A stretch of 39,858 nt of DNA from NCBI GenBank assembly GCA_018268715.1, contig JAFDVZ010000018.1, forward strand, positions 1-39,858, in the 5' to 3' direction. Source of the stretch: Acidobacteriota bacterium (GTDB lineage Bacteria; Acidobacteriota; Terriglobia; Bryobacterales; Bryobacteraceae). A program made the translations under genes and the position numbers. Shown here piece after piece: positions 7,241-32,091 of the stretch. How positions within the stretch are numbered: the stretch's first letter is position 1; each line of letters starts with the position of its first letter. The notes beneath the pieces were generated by a model, which was not told where the DNA came from, did no database searches, and saw only the letters and a list, made by a program, of their open reading frames with translations.

Positions 7241-8419
7241 GTGACGATGACGGACCTGGTGATTGGGTTTGAGGACGACTTCATCGGGCCGCCGGGCACG
7301 GCCGCCCGGATGATTCGCGAGCTCCGGGAAGGCTCGGACGCGCAATTTGCCGACGCAGTCCGGCGCCTTCACGAAATCCAGGATCCGTACGCTAGAAACC
7401 GGCTCCTTCGCCTGTTGATGACCGATGACCGGACGCTCATACGTCTGACGCATCCCGGCGTGTTGCCCCTCAACGACGCAGTAAATCTGGCCGCGCGGAT
7501 GGTCGCCCTCGATGCGAATCTCGATGTCCGCCTGATTCGCCTGTTGATGCCCCAATCGGAAAGTGGCATACGGGACCCCTGGCACGCCAGCCGTATTCTC
7601 GAAGTGGTGGCGGCGGTCTCCTCCTGCATCCGCATCCAGCCGCTGTTGCCCACCCTGCTGCGGCATCCGGAGGTGCGGGTCCGCTCGAAGGTGGCGCTGA
7701 TTCTCGGCCGGCTCAACCAGAACGTGCAATGGCTGGAGGATCGCCTGGCGGAGGCGGATCCCCGCGTGCGCGCCAACGCCGTTGAATCGATGTGGGGCGC
7801 GGGGTCGCGGCAGGCCCGGAACCTGTTCCGGCTGGCCGCCGAGGATGAACATCAGCGGGTGGTGGCGAACGCCGCGATCGGTTTGCACCGGGCGGGCGAC
7901 CTTGAAGCGACTCGCATCGTCCAGCGCATGGCGGCCGCCCACGACGCCCGTTTTCGCGCCTCCGGCCTGTGGGCCATGGGGGAAAGCCAGGATCCGCGTT
8001 TCCTGCCGATGCTTGCTGAAATCGTCGCTTGCCGGGAAAACGGCGCCATCCGGCAGAACGCCCTCCGCTCGACGGTGCGTATACGGTCAAGGCTGGCGCA
8101 GCTTCAGCAGCGCGACCGCCTGCGCATTCACGCCTGCTGGCAGCGTGACCGGCTGGAGGTGTGGGTGCGGTCGGCCGACGGAAAGCCGCTGGTGGACCTG
8201 CCTCCAACCGCCTTCGTCGTCTGCGATCAACACGGCGCGCTGGATGTTCGGTGCGTTCGCAGCGGTGAACCCGGAGAGATGCCGGAGCATTACGAACTGG
8301 CCCTGGCCGGACTGCCCCACGACGGCGTCCGGGTGGGCGTCTATTGGGACCAATGGATGGGCGAACAGCAGGCAGGGGAGTCTCCCGCAGAGCCCGAAGG
8401 CCGTAGACTGGAGAAGTGA
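7241..8419 (+). CDS. HEAT-repeat protein
   Basis: 392 residues. Residues 30-290 are made of HEAT-like helical repeats, for example LLRHPEVRVRSKVALILGRL, ADPRVRANAVESMWGAGS and HDARFRASGLWAMGESQDPRF. The last 100 residues are different: they contain beta strands (LRIHACWQRDRLEVWVRSADGKPL) and may be a small sandwich domain of unknown fold. No signal peptide, so it should be cytoplasmic. HEAT proteins are scaffolds or binding platforms; no catalytic motif is visible. The start is GTG 7241, with ATG 7247 as an alternative. Its stop overlaps the start of the metallopeptidase gene by four bases (GTGA), so the two are made together. Confidence 0.8.
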   Translation: MTMTDLVIGFEDDFIGPPGTAARMIRELREGSDAQFADAVRRLHEIQDPYARNRLLRLLMTDDRTLIRLTHPGVLPLNDAVNLAARMVALDANLDVRLIRLLMPQSESGIRDPWHASRILEVVAAVSSCIRIQPLLPTLLRHPEVRVRSKVALILGRLNQNVQWLEDRLAEADPRVRANAVESMWGAGSRQARNLFRLAAEDEHQRVVANAAIGLHRAGDLEATRIVQRMAAAHDARFRASGLWAMGESQDPRFLPMLAEIVACRENGAIRQNALRSTVRIRSRLAQLQQRDRLRIHACWQRDRLEVWVRSADGKPLVDLPPTAFVVCDQHGALDVRCVRSGEPGEMPEHYELALAGLPHDGVRVGVYWDQWMGEQQAGESPAEPEGRRLEK

Positions 8420-19960: not shown

Positions 19961-20881
19961 ATGACTATGTCCAAAGGGTTTGCCTCCGTTGCGGCCGCCG
20001 TGATGATCACAGGTGGAGCAATCGGGATTCTGCTCAATCTGACCAGGACTCCAACCCAGAAACCTTCGGTTCCGTTGTCACCCGATCCAGCTCCGATGCG
20101 TAAGTACGAGGTCGTCGCCGAATACCCGCACGATCCGCGGGCGCTGACGCAAGGTCTGACCTACGCGAACGGTTCTTTCTATGAAAGCGTCGACGTTGAC
20201 GGGCAAGCCTCGATCAGGAAAGTGGAAATCAACACCGGTCGCGTGATCCGGCAGCACGCCCTCGACCGGCGCTTTCTCGGCGAAGGTCTGACGGAGTGGC
20301 GCGGTCAGCTCATACAGCTAACCCCAATGCGAACGAGGCAAAATGTCGTTCGCTCGTTAATTCTGGACAACCTGAAGGCCATGGGTGCTCCGTTTGTTCC
20401 CCGTGATAGCGGTGTTCGGTATGACATCGATTCGCTCCGGCCGGTGTCCACGTTCGGATACAACACGGAGGGATGGGGCCTGACGCATGACGGCCATCGG
20501 CTCATCAAGAGTGACGGCACATCGATTTTGCGCTTTCTCAATCCAGATACGCTGAAGTGGCAGGCGCAGATAGCCGTTGTCGAGGCCGGGGTGGGAATTC
20601 GGTGGCTGAACGAACTCGAGTACATCAACGGCGAGGTCTACGCCAACATCTGGCGGCAGGATCGGATAGCAATCATTCAGCTCAATTCGGGCCAGGTGGC
20701 GGGATGGATCGATCTCTCGCCACTGCGGTCGCGGATGATTCCTCCGCCCAAAGACGCTGAAGGACTCGGCGCATATGGAAAAGCAGTAGCCAACGGCATC
20801 GCGTACGACCCTGTCGGCCGACGCTTGTTTGTGACCGGCAAGAACTGGTCCCGCGTGTTTGAAATTCGTCTGCGGAGCTGA
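19961..20881 (+). CDS. Glutaminyl-peptide cyclotransferase (plant-type), membrane-anchored
   Basis: 306 residues. An N-terminal hydrophobic segment (about 8-27) followed by a proline-rich linker suggests a membrane anchor or signal. The beta-propeller QC family is recognised by YPHDPRALTQGLTYANG, FLGEGLTEW, TEGWGLTHDGHRLIKSDGT, WLNELEYINGEVYANIW and NGIAYDPVGRRLFVTGK. These enzymes turn N-terminal glutamine into pyroglutamate on exported proteins. Compared with the usual pattern, about 24 additional residues lie between QLIQLT and RPVSTF (about residues 123-150). ATG 19961 or 19967 could be the start. It is divergent from the acyl-CoA dehydrogenase. Codon use is less GC-biased than in the pst genes. 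Confidence 0.88.
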   Translation: MTMSKGFASVAAAVMITGGAIGILLNLTRTPTQKPSVPLSPDPAPMRKYEVVAEYPHDPRALTQGLTYANGSFYESVDVDGQASIRKVEINTGRVIRQHALDRRFLGEGLTEWRGQLIQLTPMRTRQNVVRSLILDNLKAMGAPFVPRDSGVRYDIDSLRPVSTFGYNTEGWGLTHDGHRLIKSDGTSILRFLNPDTLKWQAQIAVVEAGVGIRWLNELEYINGEVYANIWRQDRIAIIQLNSGQVAGWIDLSPLRSRMIPPPKDAEGLGAYGKAVANGIAYDPVGRRLFVTGKNWSRVFEIRLRS

Positions 20882-21046
20882 GCTTCGGCATATCTGGCGG
20901 ATTCGGGGACTGCCTTGTGCGCTAAGATCGTGCGGTAAGGTTGTGCATCAGCCGGCATGATTCGCGTAAGAGTCGGGCGGCTTGTGGCCAAACCTCCGGG
21001 TGGCGGGCGCTCCGGAAGTCGACAGGACAACCTCCGGCGAAGAGTG

Positions 21047-21077
21047 TTGACTTCCCGCCCACTTGGTGTGCTATAGT
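21047..21077 (+). promoter_or_regulatory. Sigma-70-like promoter before the SnoaL-like gene
   Basis: TTGACT (21047-21052) and TATAGT (21072-21077) with a 19-base spacer; the -10 is of the extended type (TGC before TATAGT). The expected transcript starts near 21084, about 60 bases before the GTG start. The long spacer makes the -35 doubtful; the extended -10 could carry the promoter alone. The rest of the 20882-21142 gap holds no gene that I can see. Confidence 0.5.
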
Positions 21078-21142
21078 CCTTTGACCGCCGATCGAGCGAC
21101 GATGGGCTTATTGACAAGGTCAGGTGAAAAGAGCAGGGAACC

Positions 21143-21538
21143 GTGCAGCACGAAACCGATTGCAACTCGCCGGAGTCCAGGAAGGCGGTCTTTCGCGCCC
21201 TGGTCGATCTCTATGCCGCGGGAGACGTCTCGGCGTTGGATCAAGTGATCCCGCCCGATTATGTCGGCCACACCTCGGCGGGTGACCGCGACCGGGAAGA
21301 GTTTCTTCAAAGCATTTTGTTTTTCCATAGGCTGTATGTCTATACCCGGGACTCGTTTCGCGTCGAGGATCAGTTGGTTGACGGCGAAAAAGTCGTTACC
21401 CGCATGACCGCTAATGTCCGACTGCGAGAAACGGGAGAGCCCATCACGTTACTGGGCATCAACATCGCTCGCATTGTGGACGGCAAAATCGTCGAAGAAT
21501 GGAATACCTGGGAGCAACTGAAGCTCCGGCAGGACTAG
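21143..21538 (+). CDS. SnoaL-like / ester cyclase-type protein (NTF2 fold)
   Basis: 131 residues. The pattern is that of the SnoaL-like polyketide cyclase family: FRALVDLYAAGDVSALDQVIPPDYVGHTS, REEFLQSILFFHRLY, then VDGEKVVTRMTANVR, and the closing NIARIVDGKIVEEWNTWE. Members form small alpha+beta barrels that may be cyclases, hydrolases or binding proteins; no substrate can be given. The start is GTG 21143 with AGCAGGGA upstream. It is 62 bases before a 7-TM gene on the same strand and may be co-transcribed with it. Confidence 0.85.
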   Translation: MQHETDCNSPESRKAVFRALVDLYAAGDVSALDQVIPPDYVGHTSAGDRDREEFLQSILFFHRLYVYTRDSFRVEDQLVDGEKVVTRMTANVRLRETGEPITLLGINIARIVDGKIVEEWNTWEQLKLRQD

Positions 21539-21600
21539 AACGGGCGGCGCCAGACACAATTGGCCCCATGGCTCGACGGCTTGGAGCGGAGAGGATTTGA

Positions 21601-22320
21601 ATGAAACCGGAACGCTTCTTTTACACCGGCGCCGGGGCCCTGTTCCTGGTTCTGACCTTCCTTGGCTTCCAGAAGTACATCTTCGAGGGCAGGCACGTTG
21701 ACGCAAGTCCGATCGACACGCGGATGGCGTCGACTGTGGCCGTCCACAGCGCATCGGTTTTCGCCTGGTACGTACTGTACTTTGTGCAGTCTCTGCTCAT
21801 TGCCGGGCGGAACCGGCGGCTCCACATGAAACTCGGCTGGAGCGTCCTCGTCGTTTCCTCAATGATTGCCGTGACAGGGCCGCTCGTGGCCATCCGCTCG
21901 ACACGCTCCTCCGCTTTTGGGGTCGCGGTCTTTGACTGGCCCGGCCCTCAGTTCTTGTTGATCATGCTTGCCGAGATACTGCTGTTCGTAGCCTTCGTGG
22001 CCATCGGAGTGCTTTATCGCCAGCGGCCCCGCGTCCACCGTCCCATGATGATGTTGGCCGGTCTGACGATGATCTCTGGCGCCACCGGCCGCATAGCATG
22101 GGTTAATTCGATCTTCGGATTCCACACCTGGACAGCCTTGTTCGGACCCGTCGTCGCCCTTGGAGCCCTGCTGCTGCTCGTACGCTCTCTCATGACCCGG
22201 CGCCTCGACCGCGAACTTGCCTACGGCTATGCCGGTCTGGCTTTGGTGACTGTCGTGGTGGCAAGGCTGGCGGGGACAGCTGGGTGGGTCCAATTGGCGG
22301 GAATGATCTTGAAGTTCTGA
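21601..22320 (+). CDS. Uncharacterised 7-TM membrane protein
   Basis: 239 residues with seven clear hydrophobic helices, the first starting at about residue 9 (GAGALFLVLTFLGF) and the last near the C-terminus. Histidines near helix ends (AVHSASVFAWY, RRLHMKLGW, RRPRVHRPMMM) recur in a way that would suit heme or metal contact, but I know of no exact family. A strong GGAGAGGA ribosome site lies just before ATG 21601. It follows the SnoaL-like gene. Confidence 0.75.
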   Translation: MKPERFFYTGAGALFLVLTFLGFQKYIFEGRHVDASPIDTRMASTVAVHSASVFAWYVLYFVQSLLIAGRNRRLHMKLGWSVLVVSSMIAVTGPLVAIRSTRSSAFGVAVFDWPGPQFLLIMLAEILLFVAFVAIGVLYRQRPRVHRPMMMLAGLTMISGATGRIAWVNSIFGFHTWTALFGPVVALGALLLLVRSLMTRRLDRELAYGYAGLALVTVVVARLAGTAGWVQLAGMILKF

Positions 22321-22828
22321 CGCTGGCAGTCGGTCAGCCTTTGCCGCCGAATAAGTCGAGTCAGCCGGCTCTTCGATGCGGCGCGATTCTCCACCTCACC
22401 CTGCCGAACCAGTGATGGCCGGCGCGAGCGTCAAAAGACGGGTGGACGGCGCCACACACAAGATAGACACCGCCATGAGCCCGGCCGGACTCGGGTCGTG
22501 CTTCGCTGTCACTATCGTCGCGGAAGGCGCTTGGCCACAAAGCCTCGCCGACTCGATGGCGGCGCATCTGCGCACCGTTACACTTCTCGGCGGCGCGTCG
22601 GAGCTTGACGCCCGCCTGCGCCACGAGCCGGAGCGATTGTCCCAGTTCAACAACAGAGCGTTCCGCCAAGCCGCGCACACCCGGCGCTGACGAGCGCCGC
22701 CAGTAGGCCGAACAGGCGCGGCGCGCGCCAACGTCGACTACCATGTGGTCGCCACCATCTCTACAGTGCGGCTTACCGCTTGGTTCGCCAAACCGTCGAG
22801 GTGATCGGATCGGCGTCTGCGGATGTTG
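22321..22828. other. Gene-free stretch between the 7-TM and arsR genes
   Basis: About 500 bases. Short open frames exist on both strands (for instance 22376-22690 forward, 22396-22731 reverse), but none has a ribosome site, a recognisable motif or the codon bias of neighbouring genes. It may be the remains of a decayed gene. Nothing else is visible until the arsR operator at 22829. Confidence 0.5.
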
Positions 22829-22854
22829 TATACTGAACCGTATGGTTCAGTATA
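22829..22854 (+). promoter_or_regulatory. Palindromic operator/promoter over the arsR start codon
   Basis: A perfect 11-bp inverted repeat, TATACTGAACC (22829-22839) and GGTTCAGTATA (22844-22854), with a 4-base centre GTAT that includes the first bases of the ATG (22842). The left arm starts with TATACT, a good -10 hexamer, placed so that transcription would begin at or next to the ATG. A regulator bound here would block both the promoter and the start of the gene, which fits autorepression by the ArsR-type protein. No clear -35 is seen. Confidence 0.7.
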
Positions 22855-23207
22855 ACCAGGCCCACTTCGATGCCTCGTTCGGCGCGCTCTCCGACGCCAC
22901 TCGGCGCGGCGTTCTGGAGCAGCTCGGGCGTGCGGACGCTTCGATCACAGCCCTCGCCGAGAGGTTCCACATGACCCTTACGGGCATGAAGAAACATGTA
23001 GGCGTCCTGGAGCAAGCGGGGCTCGTCAGCACGGAGAAGGTTGGGCGCGTGCGGACCTGCAAGCTCGGGCTGCGCGGACTGGAACAAGAGGCGGCGTGGA
23101 TCGAGAGGCATCGCCAGCTCTGGGCCGCGCGCTTCGACGAGTTGGATGTTGTTGTCGAGGAATTGAAACGGAAGGAGAAAACAAATGGACGCAAGAAGAG
23201 AAACTGA
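22842..23207 (+). CDS. ArsR-family transcriptional regulator
   Basis: 121 residues, winged helix-turn-helix. FGALSDATRRGVLEQLGRADASITALAERFHMTLTGMKKHVGVLEQAGLVSTEKVGRVRTCKL is the ArsR pattern of the subgroup paired with SRPBCC/AHSA1 genes. There is no CxC metal site, so it is unlikely to sense arsenic. ATG 22842 sits inside the palindrome described separately; upstream in-frame codons do not look like protein. Its last 23 bases overlap the AHSA1 gene, so the pair is translationally coupled. Confidence 0.92.
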   Translation: MVQYNQAHFDASFGALSDATRRGVLEQLGRADASITALAERFHMTLTGMKKHVGVLEQAGLVSTEKVGRVRTCKLGLRGLEQEAAWIERHRQLWAARFDELDVVVEELKRKEKTNGRKKRN

Positions 23208-23673
23208 GACCGTCTCCACGAAGAACCCCACGGTGGTGGAGCGGAAGTCCGAGTGCGAACTCGTCGTCACACGCACCGTCAACGGGCCTGCGCGCCTCGT
23301 GTTCGAGGCGTGGACCAAGGCGGAACTATTCAGAAGGTGGTGGGTGCCGAAATCGTACGGCCTGGACCTGCTTTCCTGCGAGATGGATGTTCGCGTCGGA
23401 GGGCAGTATCGTTTGGTGTTCCGCCACGAAGGTTCGACGATGGAGTTCTTCGGCACGTACCTCGAAGTGACGCCGGACTCGCGCCTCGTTTGGACCAACG
23501 ACGAAGGCGACGGCCAGACCATCACCACGGTAACCTTCGATGAAAGCGCGGGCAAGACGTTGTTGGTCGTGCATGATCGCTATCCCTCGAAAGAGGCGCT
23601 TGACTCCGGTTCGACGGCTGCGTTGCCCGAGGCGCTCGACCAACTCGACGAACTTCTCGCCACCCTGGGATGA
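23185..23673 (+). CDS. SRPBCC / AHSA1-domain protein
   Basis: 162 residues of the START-like fold: LVVTRTVNGPARLVFEAWTKAELFRRWWVPKSYG, then EMDVRVGGQYRLVF, MEFFGTYLEVTPDSRLVWT and a final helix EALDQLDELLATLG. These domains form a cavity for small hydrophobic ligands. Coupling to an ArsR-type regulator is a common arrangement in soil bacteria, with the ligand or inducer usually unknown. GAAGGAGA (23171-23178) is the ribosome site, inside arsR. Confidence 0.9.
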   Translation: MDARRETETVSTKNPTVVERKSECELVVTRTVNGPARLVFEAWTKAELFRRWWVPKSYGLDLLSCEMDVRVGGQYRLVFRHEGSTMEFFGTYLEVTPDSRLVWTNDEGDGQTITTVTFDESAGKTLLVVHDRYPSKEALDSGSTAALPEALDQLDELLATLG

Positions 23674-24022
23674 AGTCCTGACACCAGGTGACGGAGCCAA
23701 TCCGTCAAACAAAGAAGCGTCACGAAGCGCCGCTCTCGGACGCCTGGGTTTCGGGGGACGCTTCGCGATATGGTCGGCGGCGAGCCAAGGCTGCTAATCG
23801 GCCAGCCAGCCTCTCCATGGCTGGGCGGTGGTCGCGACCTATCGCGCAGCGTTCCGCGAGCCCGTGCTCCCGCTGATTTCGCGCCGTGCTGCATCCGTCC
23901 CCGGCGCCCGTCGTAAGGTCCCACCTCCACGCGACCTGTTAGCGTTCACATTTCTCACGGTGACTCGCGGGCGCCAGAGGTTAAGACAGGCCACTTCCGG
24001 ACATGCTATTCTCTCAGTTACC
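23674..24022. other. Gap before the sigma-factor gene, with a possible promoter
   Basis: About 350 bases. A frame open from 23828 could extend the sigma factor by 65 codons, but that part is proline/arginine-rich and unlike the family. TATTCT (24007-24012) with TGC in front is an extended -10; the best -35 candidates (GACAGG 23985, TAAGAC 23982) are weak. A 6-bp hairpin CCAGCC/GGCTGG lies near 23801-23825. Confidence 0.4.
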
Positions 24023-24580
24023 TTGACCGACGTTGACTTATCCCTTACTGGGCGGCTCAGGCATCTTGCTGGCGGGGACCGGGCGATCGCGGACGATGTG
24101 TTGCGTGAGATATTGCCCCGCCTCCGCCAGATAGCCGCCAGGCAACTGGGACGGGAGGGTAGCCTGCCGCCGCTCACGCCCACCGAACTAATTCATGAGT
24201 CATGGTTACGTCGCTTGCGGCGCAGTAACTGGCGGATCAACGATCGGGAGCACTTCTTCTGTATGGTGGCTTACGCTATGCGCCAGATCCTGATCGATTT
24301 CGCCCGCGAGCGTAGCGCCATGATGCGCAGCGCCGTGCCGGCCGACGGCCCGGACCCTCTCCGCCCAGCCATGCGGAACGTTCAGCAGATCGTTGAGATC
24401 GGAATCGCAATGGAGGAGTTGGAGCGGCGCGACCTGCTGGCGGCCAAGATCGTGGACCTGCATTACATTGCTGGCTTCACGCTGAATGAAACGGCGGACA
24501 CCCTCGGCCTGTCCATAAAACAAGTCCGCTATCGCTGGGACCTGACCCGGTTGTGGCTTCAAGGCCGGCTTTCGGCCTGA
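24023..24580 (+). CDS. ECF-type RNA polymerase sigma factor (ECF_sub)
   Basis: 185 residues from TTG 24023, the usual length for this group. Region 2 is LTPTELIHESWLRRL ... DREHFFCMVAYAMRQILIDFARER, typical of the ECF sigma subfamily found in Acidobacteria and Planctomycetes; region 4 is DLHYIAGFTLNETADTLGLSIKQVRYRWDLTRLWL. TTG is chosen by family length; no in-frame ATG lies upstream near it, and no ribosome site is visible. The predicted start of transcription (about 24019) is almost at the TTG, so the message may be leaderless. It ends tail-to-tail with a Ser/Thr kinase, overlapping it by 22 bases; sigma factors of this type often work with such kinases in place of an anti-sigma factor. 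Confidence 0.85.
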   Translation: MTDVDLSLTGRLRHLAGGDRAIADDVLREILPRLRQIAARQLGREGSLPPLTPTELIHESWLRRLRRSNWRINDREHFFCMVAYAMRQILIDFARERSAMMRSAVPADGPDPLRPAMRNVQQIVEIGIAMEELERRDLLAAKIVDLHYIAGFTLNETADTLGLSIKQVRYRWDLTRLWLQGRLSA

Positions 24581-25383
24581 GCGCCGGCCAATTCGTCAGC
24601 CAGGGCTTCGGCGAATGGGCCAATGCCTTTCGGTCGCCTTGTAGGATCGAACTCCAACGCCGACGCCAGCAACTCCGAAGCCTTCTGTCCAATCGGTACG
24701 CAGGCGGCAAAATGCTCGCGGACCCGCTCGGGAAGTTCGGTGGACGCCATCGGAAATAGATCCGAGACACTCTTGCCCGTGATCATTTCGATCACCACCT
24801 TCGCCAGACTGTAAATGTCTGACTCCGGCGCCGCATAACCCAACGCCTGCTCGGGCGCCAGATACTGTATGGTTCCGCCGGGGCGGGACAGTCCCAGGAC
24901 CGACTGATCCGGATTTTTGATGATAGCCACCGAGAAATCAATCACCACGACCTCCCGGCCCGGAGGCGCCGCTGAGCGGATCATCAGATTATCCGGCTTT
25001 ATGTCACCGTGACAGATATGGTGCGCATGAATCGCGGCGAGCGCCGCCCCAATCTGGCGAAGCCACGACGCACAGACATCCAGCCTGACTCCACCCTTGC
25101 GAAGCACCGCGCGAAGCGTCTCGCCCTCGACAAACTCCATCGCGATGAACTCCGACCCTTGGGGCGTGATCCCGTGCCCCACCGTGCGCACCACGTTGGG
25201 ATGCGCGATCAACTCTAACGCACGCATCTCTTGGTCGAAGGCGCCGCGAGACGGGTTTCCGAACTCCTCTCGAAATAGCTTCACCGCGCACCGGCTTCCG
25301 TCCGCCAGGTCGCGCGCGGCAAACACCGTCCCGAATCCGCCGCGGGCAATGGCCTGGCTGTAGCTTTCAGAATTATTTGGCAT
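24559..25383 (-). CDS. Ser/Thr kinase domain, 3' part of a gene split by a transposon
   Basis: Complete kinase catalytic domain: glycine loop ARGGFGTV, lysine in CAVKLF, helix-C glutamate in FDQEMRAL, catalytic loop HGDIKPDNLM, magnesium motif DFS in place of DFG, and GTIQYLAPEQ with ESDIYSLAKVVIEMITGK. HGD instead of HRD makes it a non-RD kinase. It is the C-terminal end of a 1,052-residue sensor kinase whose N-terminal part lies at 29727-32091. Host sequence ends at 25358; the first residues now come from the transposon end, which supplies in-frame ATGs at 25383 and 25407 (the frame stays open to 25452). Whether this piece is made is unknown. It overlaps the sigma-factor gene end. Confidence 0.8.
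   Translation of the reverse strand: MPNNSESYSQAIARGGFGTVFAARDLADGSRCAVKLFREEFGNPSRGAFDQEMRALELIAHPNVVRTVGHGITPQGSEFIAMEFVEGETLRAVLRKGGVRLDVCASWLRQIGAALAAIHAHHICHGDIKPDNLMIRSAAPPGREVVVIDFSVAIIKNPDQSVLGLSRPGGTIQYLAPEQALGYAAPESDIYSLAKVVIEMITGKSVSDLFPMASTELPERVREHFAACVPIGQKASELLASALEFDPTRRPKGIGPFAEALADELAGAQAESRP
25353..25358. repeat. Target-site duplication, left copy
   Basis: CCTGGC, identical to 29727-29732 at the other end of the transposon. The flanking seventh base differs (G here, C there). Confidence 0.85.
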
Positions 25384-25408
25384 AGAGCCGTCAACTTTAT
25401 TTGGCATA
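25359..25408 (+). repeat. Left transposon end: terminal and inner transposase-binding repeats
   Basis: The outer repeat (25359-25384) ends in TTATTTGGCATA; an inner copy of the core, TCAACTTTATTTGGCATA (25391-25408), lies 24 bases further in, against TCAGAATTATTTGGCATA in the outer. Two repeats per end is the layout reported for Tn552 transposase sites. Confidence 0.85.
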
Positions 25409-25418
25409 CTGGTCCGGT

Positions 25419-26885
25419 ATGGACGACATGTCCGGGCTCCCAGAAGAGGCACGCAAGCTGGCTATGGAGCGCTTCCGGTTGCTCCAGCCGCACCTCGAAC
25501 AGAATGAGTCTTTGATCTCGGTGGCGAAGGCCGCCGGGATTCCGTATCGAACGGCCCACCGTTTGGTTTCCGAGTATCGCCGACATGGACTCGCCGCCTT
25601 GGTGCGCAAGCAGCGGAAGGATCGAGGTCAGCGCCGTGCGGTCTCCGAATCGCTCAAGAAAGCCATCGAAGGCTTGGCCCTGCAGAAGCCGCCTCTGCCC
25701 ACCGCCGCGCTCTATCGCCAAGTCCTCAAGCTTTGCCAAGAACGCGGAGAAGATCCACCCAGCTACGGCACCGTCTTCAGCATCGTGCGGAAGTTGCCCG
25801 CCGATCTGGTGACGCTGGCGCACGAAGGAACCAAGGCATACAGCAACACATTCGAACTGGTTCATCGGCGTGAAGCGGATCGCCCAAACGCAATCTGGCA
25901 GGCCGACCACACGCCGCTCGACATATTGCTCCTCCGTCCCGATGGCCAGACCGCCAAACCGTGGCTCACAACTGTGATCGACGACTACAGCCGCGCGGTG
26001 GCGGGTTACTTCCTCTCGTTTGAAGACCCATCAGCGTTGCACACCTCTCTCGCGTTGCGGCAGGCGATTTGGCGCAAGGAAGAACCGCGCTGGATTGTGT
26101 GCGGCATACCCCACGTTCTCTATACCGACAATGGAAGCGACTTCACGTCCCAACATCTGGAACAGGTCGGTGCGGAGTTGAAGATCCGGCTGGTGTTTTC
26201 CATTCCCGGCAAGCCGCGCGGTCGTGGCCGCATCGAACGTTTCTTTTCAACCGTCAACGACATGTTCTTGTGCGAGTTGCCCGGCTATGCCCCGTCCGGC
26301 GGCAGAGTCCGGGGCAAGGCTTCATTGACGCTGGCCGAGCTTGACGCCAAGTTCAGAACCTTTCTTTTGGACATCTACCATCGCCGCGACAACGCAGAGA
26401 CCAAGACCCCGCCGATTGAACGCTGGGAAGCGAACGGGTTTCTACCTCGAATGCCGGATTCGCTGGAGAAACTCGACTTGCTGCTGATTCAGGTCGCCAA
26501 GACGCGCCAGGTGCGAGTGGACGGCATTCACTTCCAGAATCTCCGCTACATCTCCACGACGCTTGCTGCTTATATCGGCGAGACCGTAACCTTGCGAATC
26601 GATCCAAGGGACATGGCGGAAGTGCGCGTCTTCCACAAAGACAAGTTTTTGTGCCGCGCAGTCTGCGCCGAACTCGCCGGTGAGACCGTGCCACTCCGGG
26701 AAATCATCCGCGCCAGGAATCGGCGGCGACGGGAACTTCGTGGTGTTCTTCGAGACCGCCAGGCCGCCGTAAATACGTTGATCGACCTGAAGCGTGGAGA
26801 CGCGGAGTATGCTCCACCCTCAACCACAACAGAAGAACCAAGAAAACGGGCAACCACTGCCCTCAAGCGTTACCGAAACGAGTAA
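25419..26885 (+). CDS. DDE transposase of the Mu/TniA type
   Basis: 488 residues. An N-terminal helix-turn-helix (SLISVAKAAGIPYRTAHRLVSEYRRHGLAAL) is followed by the integrase core: D163 (WQADHTPLD), D237 (LYTDNGSDF) and E273 (GRGRIERFF), with 35 residues between the last two, so the DDE triad is intact. The C-terminal part (ISTTLAAYIGETVTLRIDPRDMAEVRVF) is the beta-barrel of Mu-type transposases. It binds the end repeats, cuts them and joins them to the target. The start is ATG 25419 or 25428; the frame opens at TTG 25401 inside the end repeat. Its last 77 bases overlap the ATPase gene. Confidence 0.9.
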   Translation: MDDMSGLPEEARKLAMERFRLLQPHLEQNESLISVAKAAGIPYRTAHRLVSEYRRHGLAALVRKQRKDRGQRRAVSESLKKAIEGLALQKPPLPTAALYRQVLKLCQERGEDPPSYGTVFSIVRKLPADLVTLAHEGTKAYSNTFELVHRREADRPNAIWQADHTPLDILLLRPDGQTAKPWLTTVIDDYSRAVAGYFLSFEDPSALHTSLALRQAIWRKEEPRWIVCGIPHVLYTDNGSDFTSQHLEQVGAELKIRLVFSIPGKPRGRGRIERFFSTVNDMFLCELPGYAPSGGRVRGKASLTLAELDAKFRTFLLDIYHRRDNAETKTPPIERWEANGFLPRMPDSLEKLDLLLIQVAKTRQVRVDGIHFQNLRYISTTLAAYIGETVTLRIDPRDMAEVRVFHKDKFLCRAVCAELAGETVPLREIIRARNRRRRELRGVLRDRQAAVNTLIDLKRGDAEYAPPSTTTEEPRKRATTALKRYRNE

Positions 26886-27798
26886 GCATCAACCGCCGAC
26901 AGTTGTCGAGACCCTCGAACACCGCCGCTTTACTGAGTTCTGCGACGCGTGCCGCCGATATCGGTACATAGGCCTCTGCTACGGACCGTCGGGAGTTGGC
27001 AAGACCCTTTCCGCCCGAACCTACAGCAGGTGGGACAAGGTCAAGCAATCGGACCGCTGGAGCTCTGGCCCTACGGAAGCGACGTTGCTGGATACCGTCC
27101 TCTACACGCCCGATGTGGTGAATGCGCCGGGGAACATCTCCTCCGGCATTCGGTTAGCCCGCGACACGCTGAGAGATTTGGCGAGACGCCCGGTGCGTCA
27201 TGAACGGGAGCAACTGCTGGAATCCATTCAGCGGCGAGACCAAGAACAAGAAGCTGACTATCTTACGAAGCATGATTGGTTGAGCGAGGAGCCATTCCCG
27301 AAGCTCCAGCCATCCTATGGCGAGGTGGCTCGGGAGTATGGTCTTAAGGATGCGAGGATCGCCGACCCGACAACGCTCATTCTCATCGACGAGGCAGACC
27401 GTCTCCGCATGGCGAGCCTTGAACAGGTGCGGGCGATCTTCGACGCCAGTGAGGTTGGCATCGTGCTAATCGGTATGCCCGGCCTTGAGAAGCGCCTGGC
27501 GCGGTACGCGCAGTTCTATTCCAGGATCGGGTTCGTCCACGAGTTCCGTCCGCTTGGAACCACAGAAATCCGGCGGTTGTTGGCGCAACGATGGACACCA
27601 GCCGGGGTGAACCTGCCCGAACAGCCCTGGGCTGAAGAAGCAATCGCAACGATCATTCGCGTAACCGGTGGGAACTTTCGCTTGCTGCATCGGCTCCTCA
27701 CGCAGATGGAGAGAATTCTGGAAATCAATTCGCTGCGAGGAGTCACTAAGGAAGCGGTCGATGCGGCGCGGGAAAGCCTGGTTATCGGCCAAGCCTGA
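26809..27798 (+). CDS. AAA+ ATPase, TniB/TnsC-like transposition protein
   Basis: 329 residues. Walker A GPSGVGKT (residues 59-66), Walker B LILIDEAD (190-197), then EVGIVLIGMPGLEKRLARYAQFYSRIGFVHEF, typical of ATPases that partner Mu-type transposases and pick the target site. ATG 26809 is preceded by GGAGA (26796-26800) inside the transposase gene. An insertion of about 70 charged residues (LLESIQRRDQEQEADY ... KLQPSYGEVAREYG) between the Walker motifs makes it longer than the 271-residue ATPase of Tn552. The gene is convergent with the esterase gene. Confidence 0.88.
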   Translation: MLHPQPQQKNQENGQPLPSSVTETSKHQPPTVVETLEHRRFTEFCDACRRYRYIGLCYGPSGVGKTLSARTYSRWDKVKQSDRWSSGPTEATLLDTVLYTPDVVNAPGNISSGIRLARDTLRDLARRPVRHEREQLLESIQRRDQEQEADYLTKHDWLSEEPFPKLQPSYGEVAREYGLKDARIADPTTLILIDEADRLRMASLEQVRAIFDASEVGIVLIGMPGLEKRLARYAQFYSRIGFVHEFRPLGTTEIRRLLAQRWTPAGVNLPEQPWAEEAIATIIRVTGGNFRLLHRLLTQMERILEINSLRGVTKEAVDAARESLVIGQA

Positions 27799-27834
27799 CC
27801 TCTACACTAAGCAGTCAGACGGAGTATTGCAGGG

Positions 27835-27848
27835 CTCGCCATGGCGAG
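27835..27848. repeat. Perfect 14-bp palindrome between convergent genes
   Basis: CTCGCCATGGCGAG lies in the 100-base gap between the ends of the ATPase and esterase genes. It has no T-run. It could be a weak bidirectional terminator stem or simply chance. Confidence 0.3.
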
Positions 27849-27898
27849 TAAGCCAACACCGCGATTGATCGTGATCCGCTCATGACCGGAAGCTTGGT

Positions 27899-28822
27899 CT
27901 ACTTAGAGATCGATCCAGGGATACGACTTTCGAGCCAGTGTTCAAAGAGCAATGTCCAGCTATCGACGGGTAAGCCTCTGGGGCGCAGGCCGAAACCGTG
28001 ACCACCCTTTTCAAATACGTGCAGTTCAACCGCGCGCCCGGCCTTGCCCCAAGCGGCTGCGGCTTCGAGGTTGCCAGAGACCGGCAGTACGCGGTCATCC
28101 GCAGCGCAGGCGATGAAAAGTGGCGGTGCATCGGCAGGAACCGCGCCCAGCGGCTTTGACCCGTAGATTGATCCTACAAAATCGGGCCGGCTAAGACGAT
28201 CCTGTGTCACGCCAGCTTCGACAGCAATGCCCGCGCCCGACGAGAAGCCCATGATACCGATTCGATCCGATTTGAGGTTCCAATCGGCATGTCGCTCACG
28301 GACGAGTTGCATGGCTCTGAACCCATCGGCGTGTGCGATGCGAGCATGCACAAGCATAGCTTGATAAGCTTTATCGAAATCGGTTCTGGCATCACGGAAC
28401 ACCTTGCTGAATATGGCCCTGAACTCAGCGTCGGTCTTCCCTGTATCCGCGAGGCGGAATTTGAGTAGGAATACGGTAATCCCCTTGCTGTTGAGCCACT
28501 CTGCGATCTCTATTCCTTCTTTCTGCCACGACAAAACGTGGAGCGCCCCTCCTGGACCAACGACGATTCCAGTGCCATTCGGTGTCCCTTTGGGAGGATA
28601 GACCGTAATTGTGGGATCGACTACGTTGCGGATCGTCTCACCACCTGACGTCGGATCATTGAAACGCACTTCCGTTCGAGTCCAGGTCTCTGAGCCTGGG
28701 GCAACGCCCGGCCAGAGGCGAATCTCTTGCCGGTCTGTTGCGGCGTTGAGGTTTAGAGTCCCATGAGTCAGGAGCGCAGCCGTTGAGGCTTGAAAGAACC
28801 CCCGGCGGGAATTCAAAGACAT
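27899..28822 (-). CDS. Tat-exported alpha/beta hydrolase (esterase-like), transposon passenger
   Basis: 307 residues. The N-terminus NSRRGFFQAS is a twin-arginine export signal. The alpha/beta hydrolase triad is in place: nucleophile S194 in GFSSG, D242/D243 in CAADDRVLP, H275 in KGGHGFG. The region GIVVGPGGALHVLS replaces the HGGG oxyanion motif. Nearest in style to the acetyl-xylan esterase / carbohydrate-esterase type hydrolases of soil bacteria; the substrate is unknown. It is the only passenger gene of the transposon and is transcribed against the transposition genes. Codon use is less GC-biased than in the host genes, which fits arrival with the element. Confidence 0.87.
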   Translation of the reverse strand: MSLNSRRGFFQASTAALLTHGTLNLNAATDRQEIRLWPGVAPGSETWTRTEVRFNDPTSGGETIRNVVDPTITVYPPKGTPNGTGIVVGPGGALHVLSWQKEGIEIAEWLNSKGITVFLLKFRLADTGKTDAEFRAIFSKVFRDARTDFDKAYQAMLVHARIAHADGFRAMQLVRERHADWNLKSDRIGIMGFSSGAGIAVEAGVTQDRLSRPDFVGSIYGSKPLGAVPADAPPLFIACAADDRVLPVSGNLEAAAAWGKAGRAVELHVFEKGGHGFGLRPRGLPVDSWTLLFEHWLESRIPGSISK

Positions 28823-28999
28823 GGAAGCCAGTATACTACAGTACCTGTTGAGTGCTCAGAATCCAGAGGCAAGTGAAGCCGATTCGTTGGCAATCCGAAT
28901 CTGGGCGGCACCGAAGTTGTTTTGGGTTGGCGGCAGATAGCTACTCTCTTGTCGCCAGGTGCAGAGTAACCACTACCCTCTTGACTGGTAAAACTGACT

Positions 29000-29114
29000 C
29001 GTTGCTCAAACGAACGTTTTTGCAACGACTTCCGCTGTGGCGCGTTTCTGGGATATCTGCATTGCAAAAAGGTATTGCTCAATGTAAAGTAATGGCAATA
29101 CATTATCGCAATGC
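29000..29114 (+). other. Putative res (resolution) site
   Basis: A 28-base near-palindrome (29000-29027; arms CGTTGC..AAACG and CGTTT..GCAACG, 24 of 28 positions symmetrical, centre AA) has the length of a resolvase crossover site. Then, after 31 bases, a larger inverted arrangement: GCATTGC-N6-GTATTGC (29059-29078) facing GCAATAC-N6-GCAATGC (29095-29114). The second block includes the resolvase ATG, so binding there could also repress the gene. The rest of 28823-29110 holds no gene. Confidence 0.6.
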
Positions 29115-29689
29115 TCATAGGCTACGCCCGAGTCTCAACCAACGATCAGGAAACCGCCACCCAGGTGACGGCGTTGAAGGCGGCGGGCTGTGAGCGGACT
29201 TATCGCGAGAAGGCTTCCGGCGGGAGGTGGGACCGGCCCGAACTCCATCGGCTCCTCGACCAAATCCGCAAAGGGGACGTGCTGGTTGTTTGGAAGCTCG
29301 ATCGGCTTTCGCGCTCGCTCCGCGATGTTCTGGCGATCATGGATCGGCTCAGCGAAGCTGGAGCCGGCTTCCGCAGCCTGACCGAAGCGATCGACACCAC
29401 AACGCCGGCAGGAAGAATGATGATGCAGATGGTCGGGGCGTTCGCTGAATTCGAAAGGATGATGCTACGGGAAAGAACCAAGGCGGGTTTGGATTCAGCC
29501 CGCCGGGATGGTCGGATCGGCGGGCGCCCTCCAAAACTCTCACCTCAACAGCAAGCGGAGATCATCCGAATGGTCTCGAAAGGTCGTAAAACAGCAGCGG
29601 ACGCGGCCAGGCTATTCAAGATTCATCCCTCCACGGTCTCACGGTTGCTGGCGCGGTCGCCGCGCTCCAAGGCCGGCTATGCCAAATAG
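29111..29689 (+). CDS. Serine recombinase (resolvase family)
   Basis: 192 residues. N-terminal catalytic domain: MLIGYARVSTNDQ with nucleophile S9, DVLVVWKLDRLSRSLRDVL, and FRSLTEAIDTTTPAGRMMMQMVGAFAEFERMMLRERTKAGL. The C-terminal helix-turn-helix (SKGRKTAADAARLFKIHPSTVSRLLAR) reads the site. It resolves cointegrates made during replicative transposition. Its stop codon TAG lies within the inner repeat of the right transposon end (29678-29695), so gene and end are interlocked. The ATG sits inside the putative res/operator palindrome. Confidence 0.93.
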   Translation: MLIGYARVSTNDQETATQVTALKAAGCERTYREKASGGRWDRPELHRLLDQIRKGDVLVVWKLDRLSRSLRDVLAIMDRLSEAGAGFRSLTEAIDTTTPAGRMMMQMVGAFAEFERMMLRERTKAGLDSARRDGRIGGRPPKLSPQQQAEIIRMVSKGRKTAADAARLFKIHPSTVSRLLARSPRSKAGYAK

Positions 29690-29726
29690 CGCTGAAAGAC
29701 TATGCCAAATAATTATGAAAGTGACA
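29678..29726 (-). repeat. Right transposon end: inner and terminal repeats
   Basis: On the reverse strand the tip begins TGTCACTTTCA (29726 inward) and reaches ATTATTTGGCATA at 29701. An inner copy, TCAGCGCTATTTGGCATA, lies at 29695-29678, 23 bases further in. It overlaps the last codons of the resolvase gene. Confidence 0.85.
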
Positions 29727-32091
29727 CCTGGCCCAGGACAAACCGGCCATCGAGCGTCGCACCCGGCAGTCTCTCCGATTCGGACCGGAGAATCTCCGCG
29801 CGCGCCTCCGTCAGATCGGGCAACGGCGGCAACTCTTTCCTCCGTCGCCGTCGCCGCGCGATCGCTGCGAGAATCCCGGCGAACCCGGCGATCGGCAGCG
29901 CGACCACCCCTGCGTTCTTCAGCATTGTCGCGACAGAACGCTGGATGCGGAACGGAAACCGCACAGGCTCGCTGTTCCATCCCCGCGCCACTTCGACCTC
30001 ATATCGGCCCGGGCTGAGTCCCGGCCATACCAGTTCTCCCTTCTCGCTGACCTTCCAGTCCCGATCCGTAGGATGAAGCCTATACCGCAGGGGCAGCCAG
30101 GCAAAGCCGGATACACGGATGGACAGGGAGCCTGGTTGCTCGAATTCCGGCGGAAACCCCGCGGGCTCGAGGAAACGTCGGTTGCCGTAACTCAGGGCAG
30201 TGATTCTGGGACGGTCGGATCCGCCGAACCAACTGGAATCGGGCCGCAATTGTGCGATCCCGTTTTCTGTGCCCACCCAGACGCTCCCGTCGTCATCCTC
30301 CAGCAAGGCGTAACGCCCGACCACCGCCGACGGTAGTCCTTCCGTCTCGGACATATGAACCCAATCGCCCGTATCGGTATGCACGCCATCCGACACCCAG
30401 ACTCCATCGTCGTGACTCGCCCTCCATACCCAACCGCGCCGGTCGACGCGAATCAGCGTGGTGTTCCATTGCCGGTCGCTTCTCGCGTTCTCGAAGTGAG
30501 TGGCGCTCCAGCCTTGCCCCGACCGTCGGAATCGCGAGAATCCACGGTCTCGATAGGCCACCCATAAATCTCCGTTGGCTCCCAGGGAGAGACTCAGCGG
30601 GCGGCCCAACAGTCCATTCTTTGCGGAAAGGACCATCTCGCATCGGTCCCCCACGACGCGGCACACGTTGTCCTCGATCGCGGCCCAACCGGCGCCGTTG
30701 CTGTCCAACGCGATGTCCTGTACGTTGAATTCGCTCGTCGGCCGCAGAATCGTAGTCCAATGGCCGCCGCTGTAGCGACAAAGCCCGACTTTTCCGCCGC
30801 ACAGCACGCTGCCGTCCGGCTCGGCGATCACCCGCCGCAAGGAAGTTTCCTGTATTCCCGAGGACGTTCCAAAACCGTGGAGCACCCGTCCGTCGGCCGA
30901 GAGCTCCACTAGGCCGCCGAGCCGAAATAGTCCCAAGGCCGTCCCTCTGCCGCCTGTAACGTAGCTGATCCCGGGCCGGCTCGTATTCTCATTAATTGCC
31001 GTCCAACTGCGATGGCTCTCCTTGTGAAGAAGAATGCCTTTGGCGGTCGCCGCGAGCCAGCTTGAGGGCCCCGCGCGCATGATCGATGTGACTTCCCCGT
31101 AGGCATCGGATAATTGCTCGACATCGGCAAGCGGACCCATCCCGAGGACAGCTAGCCCCTTTTCGGCTACTCCTAGCCAGATGCGGCCGCCGGCATCCTC
31201 GAACACGCAGTTTACCTGCTGCCCCTCGATCTGTCGGATCGCGACCTTGTGCAACTTCCCGTCTTCCATCAGCCATGGGAAGTCCCCGGGAATCCAGATT
31301 CGGCCCAGATGGTCTTCATACATTCCGGGGCGTGAATTCCCACGCGTGAAATTCCCCACATAGAAGTTCTCCCGTGGCTGATGCCCATCGAGCAGAGTCA
31401 CAACGCCCGAAAAGAACGCCCGCGAATAGACCCGGCCAGCAGAGTCTCGGAGTAAGTGCTGGACGTCATGAGTTCCCATTTCGTCAGGGATGCGGCCGTC
31501 AAGCACGGTTCGGTTCCCGGCGACATACTCTCGGAACTCGCCTTCGCGGATCGCTTTCTGCAGGTTGGCGTCATTGCGAACCCCGCACGGACGATCGCCG
31601 CAACGCTGCCACAGCCAGCCGTCGCGTGAGAGCCACGCCCAATGCCCGATCGGTTTCTGGGGATGCACTTGGACTCCCCGTTCACTCCAGGACACGCCTG
31701 CCAACTGAGGTGTGAAGTCTGGCGCGATTTCGAGCGTCAACACAAGATCGTTGGTGAGGCTGGTGATCCCGACTGTGTGTCGGCCGGAGATCTTCTTCAC
31801 CACTCCGTCCACATACGCAAACAACCCGTTCTTGGCGGCTGCCAGCACAGCGGGACCGACCATGGCGACGGTGGACGGCGTGTCGAAATCCCCCTCGATC
31901 TTCTGGAAGTTATACCCGTCGAACCGGAAGACACCCTCATCCGCGGCCAACCAGAGAAACCCGCGCCGATCCTGGGCAATGCTGATCGGAGAGATCCGCT
32001 GAGTCGGATCTGAGAAGAATCGCAGTGCGGGATCCGCGCCGGCCAGGCACGGGAGCAGCGCTAGCAGGCCGATGCGGATTTCTCGACGCAC
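29713..32091 (-). CDS. Beta-propeller sensor with one TM helix, 5' part of a split sensor-kinase gene
   Basis: 792 residues before a stop supplied by the transposon end. Starts with a signal peptide (IRIGLLALLPCLAGAD). Reg_prop-type propeller blades follow, for example ISIAQDRRGFLWLAADEGVFRFDGY, MYEDHLGRIWIPGD, VFEDAGGRIWLGVAEKGL and LLEDDDGSVWVGTENGI. Then a Y_Y_Y-like sandwich (LPLRYRLHPTDRDWKVSEKGELVWPGLSPGRYEVEV), one membrane helix (NAGVVALPIAGFAGILAAIA) and a basic anchor RRRRRRK. Host sequence continues to 29727 with the start of a kinase domain, GRFVLGQ, which is completed at 25352. GTG 32091 is preferred; a longer open frame to 32343 does not look like protein. Without its kinase the sensor is probably non-functional. 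Confidence 0.82.
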   Translation of the reverse strand: MRREIRIGLLALLPCLAGADPALRFFSDPTQRISPISIAQDRRGFLWLAADEGVFRFDGYNFQKIEGDFDTPSTVAMVGPAVLAAAKNGLFAYVDGVVKKISGRHTVGITSLTNDLVLTLEIAPDFTPQLAGVSWSERGVQVHPQKPIGHWAWLSRDGWLWQRCGDRPCGVRNDANLQKAIREGEFREYVAGNRTVLDGRIPDEMGTHDVQHLLRDSAGRVYSRAFFSGVVTLLDGHQPRENFYVGNFTRGNSRPGMYEDHLGRIWIPGDFPWLMEDGKLHKVAIRQIEGQQVNCVFEDAGGRIWLGVAEKGLAVLGMGPLADVEQLSDAYGEVTSIMRAGPSSWLAATAKGILLHKESHRSWTAINENTSRPGISYVTGGRGTALGLFRLGGLVELSADGRVLHGFGTSSGIQETSLRRVIAEPDGSVLCGGKVGLCRYSGGHWTTILRPTSEFNVQDIALDSNGAGWAAIEDNVCRVVGDRCEMVLSAKNGLLGRPLSLSLGANGDLWVAYRDRGFSRFRRSGQGWSATHFENARSDRQWNTTLIRVDRRGWVWRASHDDGVWVSDGVHTDTGDWVHMSETEGLPSAVVGRYALLEDDDGSVWVGTENGIAQLRPDSSWFGGSDRPRITALSYGNRRFLEPAGFPPEFEQPGSLSIRVSGFAWLPLRYRLHPTDRDWKVSEKGELVWPGLSPGRYEVEVARGWNSEPVRFPFRIQRSVATMLKNAGVVALPIAGFAGILAAIARRRRRRKELPPLPDLTEARAEILRSESERLPGATLDGRFVLGQVSLS
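29727..29732. repeat. Target-site duplication, right copy
   Basis: CCTGGC, the same as 25353-25358. Confidence 0.85.

What the first reader, a model, noticed from the sequence alone, without database searches (positions are those of the whole stretch)
24559..32091. A transposon cleanly splits a propeller-TM-Ser/Thr-kinase gene, and the original frame can be rebuilt
The sensor half (32091 to 29727) and the kinase half (25352 to 24559), joined after removing the element and one CCTGGC copy, give 3,159 bases, exactly 1,053 codons. The join reads ...GRFVLGQ-AIARGGFGTV..., a perfect kinase glycine loop. The ancestral protein therefore had signal peptide, Reg_prop propeller, Y_Y_Y-like domain, membrane helix and cytoplasmic kinase: a one-protein link from a two-component-type sensor to Ser/Thr phosphorylation. 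The rest of both halves is undamaged, so the insertion is young.
Basis: partly seen in the sequence, partly recalled or inferred. Interest (0 to 1): 0.8.

Follow-up and report, generated by a model that had tools for sequence, protein, structure and literature searches.

The report
Transposon-split propeller receptor kinase gene
A mobile DNA element has cut in two the gene for a bacterial surface sensor that carries its own protein kinase; relatives keep the gene whole, usually beside a sigma-factor gene, so the break probably disconnects an outside signal from a gene-expression switch.

Summary
Confirmed. A 4,368-bp Tn552-like transposon (25359-29726) with TGT...ACA ends and a perfect 6-bp duplication (CCTGGC) interrupts one minus-strand gene; without it the frame is open for 1,052 residues and a stop. 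A juxtamembrane LP[DNE]L motif on the sensor side occurs in 8 of 8 members of the kinase half's clade and 0 of 27 others, tying the halves together. Not in the finding: an ECF sigma gene lies tail-to-tail with the kinase, and beside 35 of 36 relatives, 28 convergent. It reads TPTE where canonical sigmas have DAED, with Thr at the position phosphorylated in EcfP. Best reading: an HTCS-like outer sensor wired through a Ser/Thr kinase to a sigma factor, here disconnected. 'Young' is not shown. The sensor half is rejected from its kinase clade's sensors (AU p 0.001), suggesting an older sensor swap. The insertion is ordinary; the receptor-kinase-sigma family is the interesting part.

The parts
25359..29726 (.). 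Tn552-like transposon, 4,368 bp
   Evidence: TGT...ACA ends, perfect 6-bp target duplication, TniA/TniB/resolvase genes
25353..25358 (.). target site duplication CCTGGC, left copy
29727..29732 (.). target site duplication CCTGGC, right copy
25359..25408 (+). left end with two TTATTTGGCATA repeats; on the minus strand each holds an ATG (25381-25383, 25405-25407) in frame with the kinase half
29677..29726 (-). right end with two such repeats
29727..32091 (-). sensor half: leader helix, Reg_prop propellers, Y_Y_Y-like cap, predicted membrane helix (model residues 720-751), juxtamembrane segment and start of kinase strand b1; now ends after four more residues coded at the element end
29812..29823 (-). 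juxtamembrane LPDL motif shared with the kinase half's clade
   Evidence: 8 of 8 clade members, 0 of 27 other relatives; motif picked after seeing the alignment; coordinates worked out from the residue numbering
24559..25352 (-). kinase half: Hanks-type Ser/Thr kinase domain; the open frame runs on into the element to GTG 25452
23828..24580 (+). ECF sigma factor gene (PF07638), tail-to-tail with the kinase and overlapping its stop by 22 bp; start codon uncertain
24182..24184 (+). Thr codon of the sigma 2.2 motif TPTE, candidate phosphosite by analogy with EcfP
25401..26885 (+). TniA/TnsB-like DDE transposase (rve plus Mu_transpos_C); ATG at 25419 is a possible start
26794..27798 (+). TniB-like AAA ATPase
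27899..28822 (-). passenger gene: alpha/beta-hydrolase, acetyl-esterase-like (best NCBIfam match PaeX, below its cut-off); twin-arginine-type leader by eye
29111..29689 (+). serine resolvase

Best explanation
A Tn552-like transposon inserted once into a single gene for a receptor kinase: an outer propeller sensor of the hybrid-two-component (HTCS) type, one membrane helix, and a cytoplasmic Ser/Thr kinase at the C terminus. The intact receptor most likely binds an outside ligand through its propellers, switches on its kinase across the membrane, and phosphorylates the ECF sigma factor encoded tail-to-tail beside it, possibly on the Thr that stands in the sigma 2.2 motif in place of acidic residues, so that the sigma can bind RNA polymerase. 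In this strain the sensor is cut from the kinase: the sensor half would end at the element as a kinase-less membrane protein, and the kinase half has lost the gene's promoter, leader and sensor, so the sigma no longer receives the outside signal. Shown: insertion anatomy, frame, uninterrupted relatives, sigma neighbourhood, kinase residues, fold similarity of the sensor. Inferred: ligand binding, kinase activity, sigma as substrate, the phosphosite, loss of signalling.
For: Duplication, ends and frame. Element genes; one full copy plus one remnant in its genome. 36 related genes: 35 from 29 of the 236 other genomes searched in the same family and 1 from another family of the class; 27 of 36 are uninterrupted stop-to-stop ORFs of 1,023-1,129 codons; no gap at the insertion point in the 35 aligned (G275 left out). 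Pfam: Reg_prop in 30 and Pkinase in 30 of 31 members scanned, the window's sensor half being one. Kinase tree: 36 receptor kinases (window included, G275 left out) on one side of a branch against 22 other kinases that I picked (SH-aLRT 87); the window in a 9-row set (99) (quick tree). DFS for DFG in the window and all 8 clade members, 9 of 35 relatives in all. LP[DNE]L on the sensor side in the window and 8 of 8 clade members, 0 of 27 others. Sigma gene beside 35 of 36: 28 convergent (from overlapping to 572 bp apart), 4 upstream on the same strand, 2 divergent, 1 downstream; 1 none found. Control in the window's genome: 6 of 30 other kinase matches lie beside a PF07638 sigma, 1 of those 6 tail-to-tail. 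Thr at the third motif position in 27 of 36 sigmas, window included. Sensor model (pLDDT 83) against the BT4663 ectodomain: E 4e-31, about 790 columns, TM 0.59. Kinase-half model pLDDT 88, pTM 0.88.
Against: The sensor half does not group with the sensors of the kinase's clade (AU p 0.0012, quick tree, long branch) and departs from columns invariant among them in 88 of 150 cases, against 1 to 16 for the other six; I read this as a swap before the insertion, but decay of the sensor is not separately excluded. Short-segment profile scores at the junction are mixed (clade against rest: TM+JM 11.6/14.4, JM+b1 22.1/16.3, b1 11.7/17.9). The kinase reads HGD where 28 of 35 relatives have HRD. For the phosphosite: in EcfK, whose motif QATE is nearest to TPTE, a T51A variant was reported functional and linker sites were added (passages); 9 of 36 sigmas lack the Thr; it also occurs in 2 own-genome PF07638 sigmas with no kinase beside them, and one own-genome sigma beside a kinase has a canonical acidic motif. 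The window sigma misses the TIGR02999 cut-off (112.5 against 126.15). No functional data.
Confidence: 0.75

Rival explanations
1. The two halves come from two different receptor genes, brought together by recombination between two element copies, and were never one gene.
For: Discordant trees: the kinase half in a set with support 99, the sensor half rejected from that clade's sensors.
Against: Exact 6-bp duplication abutting both ends, preserved frame and no residue gained or lost at the join; LPDL on the sensor side matches the kinase's clade; third-position G+C is 0.72 in both halves, weak support since neighbouring genes are similar; only one full element copy was found in the genome.
Confidence: 0.06
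2. The element has created a working free kinase: an ATG in its end repeat starts a sensor-less, soluble kinase that acts on the sigma without signal.
For: The kinase frame runs into the element with in-frame ATGs at 25381-25383 and 25405-25407 and a GTG at 25452; the ORF from the first of these is predicted to fold as a kinase domain; catalytic K, E, D, N, D are present.
Against: The scan shows no sigma-70-like promoter reading outward in 25359-25500, though it covers no other promoter types; by eye there is no strong ribosome-binding site; part of strand b1 is replaced by element-coded residues.
Confidence: 0.1
3. The insertion is old and both halves are kept by selection as separate proteins (for example the sensor half as a decoy receptor).
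For: Both halves are free of stops and frameshifts.
Against: No relative with the halves kept apart was found among the 36. The window kinase departs from columns invariant in its clade (18 of 85), but its intact sigma does so at a like rate (12 of 53), so the kinase shows no sign of its own of changed selection.
Confidence: 0.08

Closest known systems
EcfP-PknT (Vibrio parahaemolyticus) and EcfK-PknS (Xanthomonas citri), ECF43 sigma-kinase pairs
   Same: ECF sigma gene next to a Ser/Thr kinase gene; sigma 2.2 motif without full DAED and with Thr at the third place (STTA, QATE; window TPTE) (PMC8999054 section 3.4 and passages, PMC13147305 passages)
   Different: The kinase has a propeller HTCS-type sensor N-terminal of it; genes mostly convergent; sigma of the PF07638 kind, ECF group not assigned here; in EcfK further phosphosites lie in the linker
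Bacteroides HTCS sensors such as BT4663 (PDB 4a2l, 4a2m) and BT3049 (3v9f)
   Same: Ectodomain fold matched along nearly the whole sensor half
   Different: Output is a Ser/Thr kinase, not a histidine kinase with receiver and DNA-binding domains (HTCS layout recalled)
Tn552 / Tn5053-Tn402 family transposons
   Same: TniA-like DDE transposase, TniB-like ATPase, serine resolvase, TGT...ACA ends with repeated end motifs; 48% identity over 99% of the query to transposases on listed staphylococcal and enterococcal plasmids
   Different: Carries an esterase-like passenger; no TniQ-sized ORF; placement rests on gene content and recalled Tn552 features

Membership tests
Tn552-like transposon | DDE transposase with rve and Mu_transpos_C domains | tested here: met
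Tn552-like transposon | AAA ATPase (TniB/TnsC kind) and serine resolvase | tested here: met
Tn552-like transposon | TGT...ACA ends and a short target duplication (6-7 bp for Tn552, 5 bp for Tn5053: recalled) | tested here: met
   6 bp, in the one copy with both ends
Tn5053/Tn402 (Tni) transposon | TniQ gene | tested here: not met
   no unassigned ORF of that size in the element; no TniQ model was searched for
Hanks-type Ser/Thr kinase | VAIK Lys, alpha-C Glu, HxD Asp, Asn, DFG Asp, APE Glu | tested here: met
Hanks-type Ser/Thr kinase | Arg of HRD (RD subtype, not required of all members) | tested here: not met
   HGD in the window; 28 of 35 relatives have R
Hanks-type Ser/Thr kinase | kinase activity | not testable with these tools
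   -
Kinase-regulated ECF sigma (ECF43-like) | DAED altered, with Thr at the third place | tested here: met
   TPTE; 27 of 36 sigmas with Thr
Kinase-regulated ECF sigma (ECF43-like) | neighbouring Ser/Thr kinase gene | tested here: met
   window and 35 of 36 relatives
Kinase-regulated ECF sigma (ECF43-like) | membership of phylogenetic group ECF43 | not tested
   no ECF group models at hand; TIGR02999 below cut-off
Kinase-regulated ECF sigma (ECF43-like) | phosphorylation of the sigma by the kinase | not testable with these tools
   -
Hybrid two-component system (HTCS) | propeller plus Y_Y_Y ectodomain | tested here: met
   by fold; Pfam Y_Y_Y itself not hit in the window
Hybrid two-component system (HTCS) | histidine kinase, receiver and HTH output | tested here: not met
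   output is Pkinase

The most novel reading that the evidence does not exclude
A family of modular receptor kinases, so far found almost only in one bacterial family, joins HTCS-type propeller sensors to a Ser/Thr kinase whose dedicated substrate is the neighbouring, mostly tail-to-tail ECF sigma factor, and sensor ectodomains have been swapped onto conserved kinase-sigma modules; the window gene was such a swap before the transposon split it.
Probability: 0.45. Interest if true: 0.7.

Novelty: new variant of a known kind. Interest (0 to 1): 0.5.

Why it matters
If right, it is a direct route from an HTCS-type outer sensor to transcription through Ser/Thr phosphorylation of a sigma factor, in a bacterial family rich in kinases (31 kinase matches in the window's genome). 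The conserved pairs give clean, testable kinase-substrate couples with a candidate phosphosite, and the natural insertion is a ready-made disruption of one of them.

Tried and rejected
That is a weak test, since the same phmmer search gave no sensor match in 6 of the 36 true relatives, which the profile search found. In a phylum sample of 396 genomes only the window's own passed E 1e-88; 2 candidates per genome were scored there and 3, so these counts are lower bounds. Of the 40 non-family genomes one, G098, had the gene. In the 10 kinase-only loci examined the ORF opens inside the locus with the HxD motif at most 314 residues in, so they are not of this type. Decay of the kinase after insertion was tested and not supported. 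Ten selected flanking proteins of five relatives showed no shared theme. In the same-genus genome G001 the histidine kinase-regulator-UnbV block is kept; no sigma or receptor match at 1e-8 in the 19.5 kb fetched around it. Paper searches aimed at a propeller-Ser/Thr-kinase-sigma link returned no paper; the others gave the ECF43 work and context. Papers: passages of PMC13147305, passages and section 3.4 of PMC8999054, passages of PMC3174227; the rest seen only as listings.
Full report
Observation. The window holds a 4,368-bp element at 25359-29726. It begins TGT and ends ACA, has two TTATTTGGCATA-like repeats 23-24 bp apart at each end, and is bounded by CCTGGC on both sides. The minus-strand flanks, joined with one CCTGGC, give 3,159 nt, 1,053 codons, with a single stop at the end.

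Element. It encodes a DDE transposase with rve and Mu_transpos_C domains, an AAA ATPase, a serine resolvase and an alpha/beta-hydrolase passenger resembling acetyl esterases. In the 12 plasmid records listed of 4,755 with a match, the transposase is 48-57% identical, in mycobacteria, cyanobacteria, staphylococci and enterococci; its best PDB match is TnsB. No unassigned ORF of TniQ size is left. This fits a Tn552-like transposon; that Tn552 makes 6-7 bp duplications is recalled. The window's genome holds one full copy and one remnant on contig C33. Related transposases were found in 4 of 100 other genomes at E 1e-40; the closest (79%, G049) has the same terminal motif, but its contig ends inside the element, so its duplication cannot be read. 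From general knowledge such elements move by a copying route resolved by the resolvase, so precise excision and mixed alleles are not expected.

The gene that was hit. The sensor half carries Reg_prop. Its AlphaFold model (pLDDT 83) matches the HTCS ectodomain BT4663 over about 790 columns (E 4e-31, TM 0.59, 16% identity) and BT3049, and has a long helix at residues 720-751, read as the membrane helix. Pfam's Y_Y_Y is not hit in the window and in 1 of 31 members, so 'Y_Y_Y-like' rests on fold. The kinase half covers positions 5-253 of the 263-position Pkinase profile and is predicted to fold as a kinase domain when started from an ATG in the transposon end (pLDDT 88). Catalytic K, E, D, N and D are present; HRD is HGD, and DFG is DFS, the latter shared with all 8 members of its clade.

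Relatives. A profile of the joined protein and four relatives found the family in 29 of the 236 other genomes searched in the same taxonomic family and in 1 of 40 non-family genomes (G098). The 36 genes comprise 27 uninterrupted stop-to-stop ORFs of 1,023-1,129 codons, 7 cut by contig ends and 2 with frame breaks (G158, G275). None has an element at this point, and there is no gap at the insertion point in the 35 relatives aligned (G275 left out). In a phylum-wide sample of 396 genomes only the window's own passed E 1e-88 (a lower bound).

Were the halves one gene? Most likely. Beyond duplication and frame, the juxtamembrane motif LP[DNE]L, which lies on the sensor side of the element, occurs in all 8 members of the clade to which the kinase half belongs and in 0 of 27 other relatives; I picked the motif after seeing the alignment. 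Third-position G+C is 0.72 in both halves, weak support because neighbouring genes are similar. The sensor itself, however, is not that clade's sensor: its best identity is 27%, holding it with the clade's sensors is rejected (AU p 0.0012; quick tree, long branch flagged), and it departs from columns invariant among them in 88 of 150 cases, against 1 to 16 for the other six. The clade's 7 full sensors group at 99. Short-segment profile scores at the junction are mixed. I read this as a sensor swap upstream of the juxtamembrane segment, before the insertion; fast change of the sensor is not excluded.

The partner. Beyond the kinase stop, tail-to-tail and overlapping it by 22 bp, lies an ECF sigma gene (PF07638). 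Of the 36 relatives 35 have one alongside: 28 convergent (from overlapping to 572 bp apart), 4 upstream on the same strand, 2 divergent, 1 downstream; for one none was found. In the window's own genome 6 of 30 other kinase matches lie beside a PF07638 sigma and one of these 6 pairs is tail-to-tail. Fisher P is 2e-11 for adjacency and 0.005 for orientation, not corrected for shared ancestry or for the different search methods of the two counts. Sigma-kinase pairing is a known habit; the constancy and orientation here stand out.

Mechanism. In EcfP the acidic DAED motif of sigma 2.2 is replaced by STTA, and the second Thr is phosphorylated by the neighbouring kinase PknT (PMC8999054 section 3.4). 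EcfK has QATE; there a T51A variant was reported functional and sites in the linker were added (PMC13147305 passages). The window sigma reads TPTE. Of 36 sigmas (window included) 27 have Thr at this place, 14 as T-A, 11 as T-E and 2 as T-V; the six with the canonical Asp at the fourth place lack the Thr, and three others read K-S. The Thr is also present in two own-genome PF07638 sigmas without a neighbouring kinase, and one own-genome sigma beside a kinase has an acidic motif, so it is a trait of the sigma kind and not proof. I infer the chain ligand, propeller, kinase, phospho-sigma, transcription. The insertion cuts it between sensor and kinase.

After the insertion. The sensor half ends after four further residues at the element. 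The kinase half has in-frame ATGs in the element's end repeats, but the scan found no outward sigma-70-like promoter there. A free, unregulated kinase is possible, not likely.

Age. Absence of stops argues only against more than about 3% unconstrained substitution, indels ignored. The window kinase departs from clade-invariant columns more often than its relatives (18 of 85; others 0 to 9), but so does its intact sigma (12 of 53; others 1 to 7), so for the kinase this looks like lineage divergence rather than decay. 'Young' is plausible, not shown.

Setting. Among the 33 genes tabulated, those from about 20 to 32 kb have third-position G+C of 0.59-0.77, the others 0.72-0.89. The same-genus genome G001 keeps the downstream histidine kinase-regulator-UnbV block (53-67% protein identity); no sigma or receptor match was found in the 19.5 kb fetched there, and none at E 1e-88 in its genome. 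The pair may be a variable, acquired locus.

Noticed in passing
G000 contig C33 44029-44729 (L034 about 8030-8730): Remnant of a related element: resolvase DNA 80% identical, split over two frames, followed by one element end; no transposase match in the 16 kb fetched.
   Followed up: partly
window 27899-28822: The transposon carries an acetyl-esterase-like gene with the lowest third-position G+C (0.59) of the 33 genes tabulated; the best match outside the window in 61 genomes is 55% identical (G007).
   Followed up: partly
window about 19961-32091: Stretch of lower third-position G+C (0.59-0.77 against 0.72-0.89 elsewhere), possibly an acquired region that includes the sigma-receptor pair.
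   Followed up: partly
L232 (G000 C40 533668-536887): A second own-genome PF07638 sigma lies tail-to-tail, 16 bp from a kinase gene with the kinase domain near its N terminus.
   Followed up: no
L189/L209 (G158) and L199/L210 (G275): Two relatives of the receptor kinase carry frame breaks, either assembly errors or further broken copies.
   Followed up: no
kinase clade of the window (G124, G122, G139, G110, G241, G098, G133, G215): All 8 have DFS in place of DFG, as does the window.
   Followed up: partly
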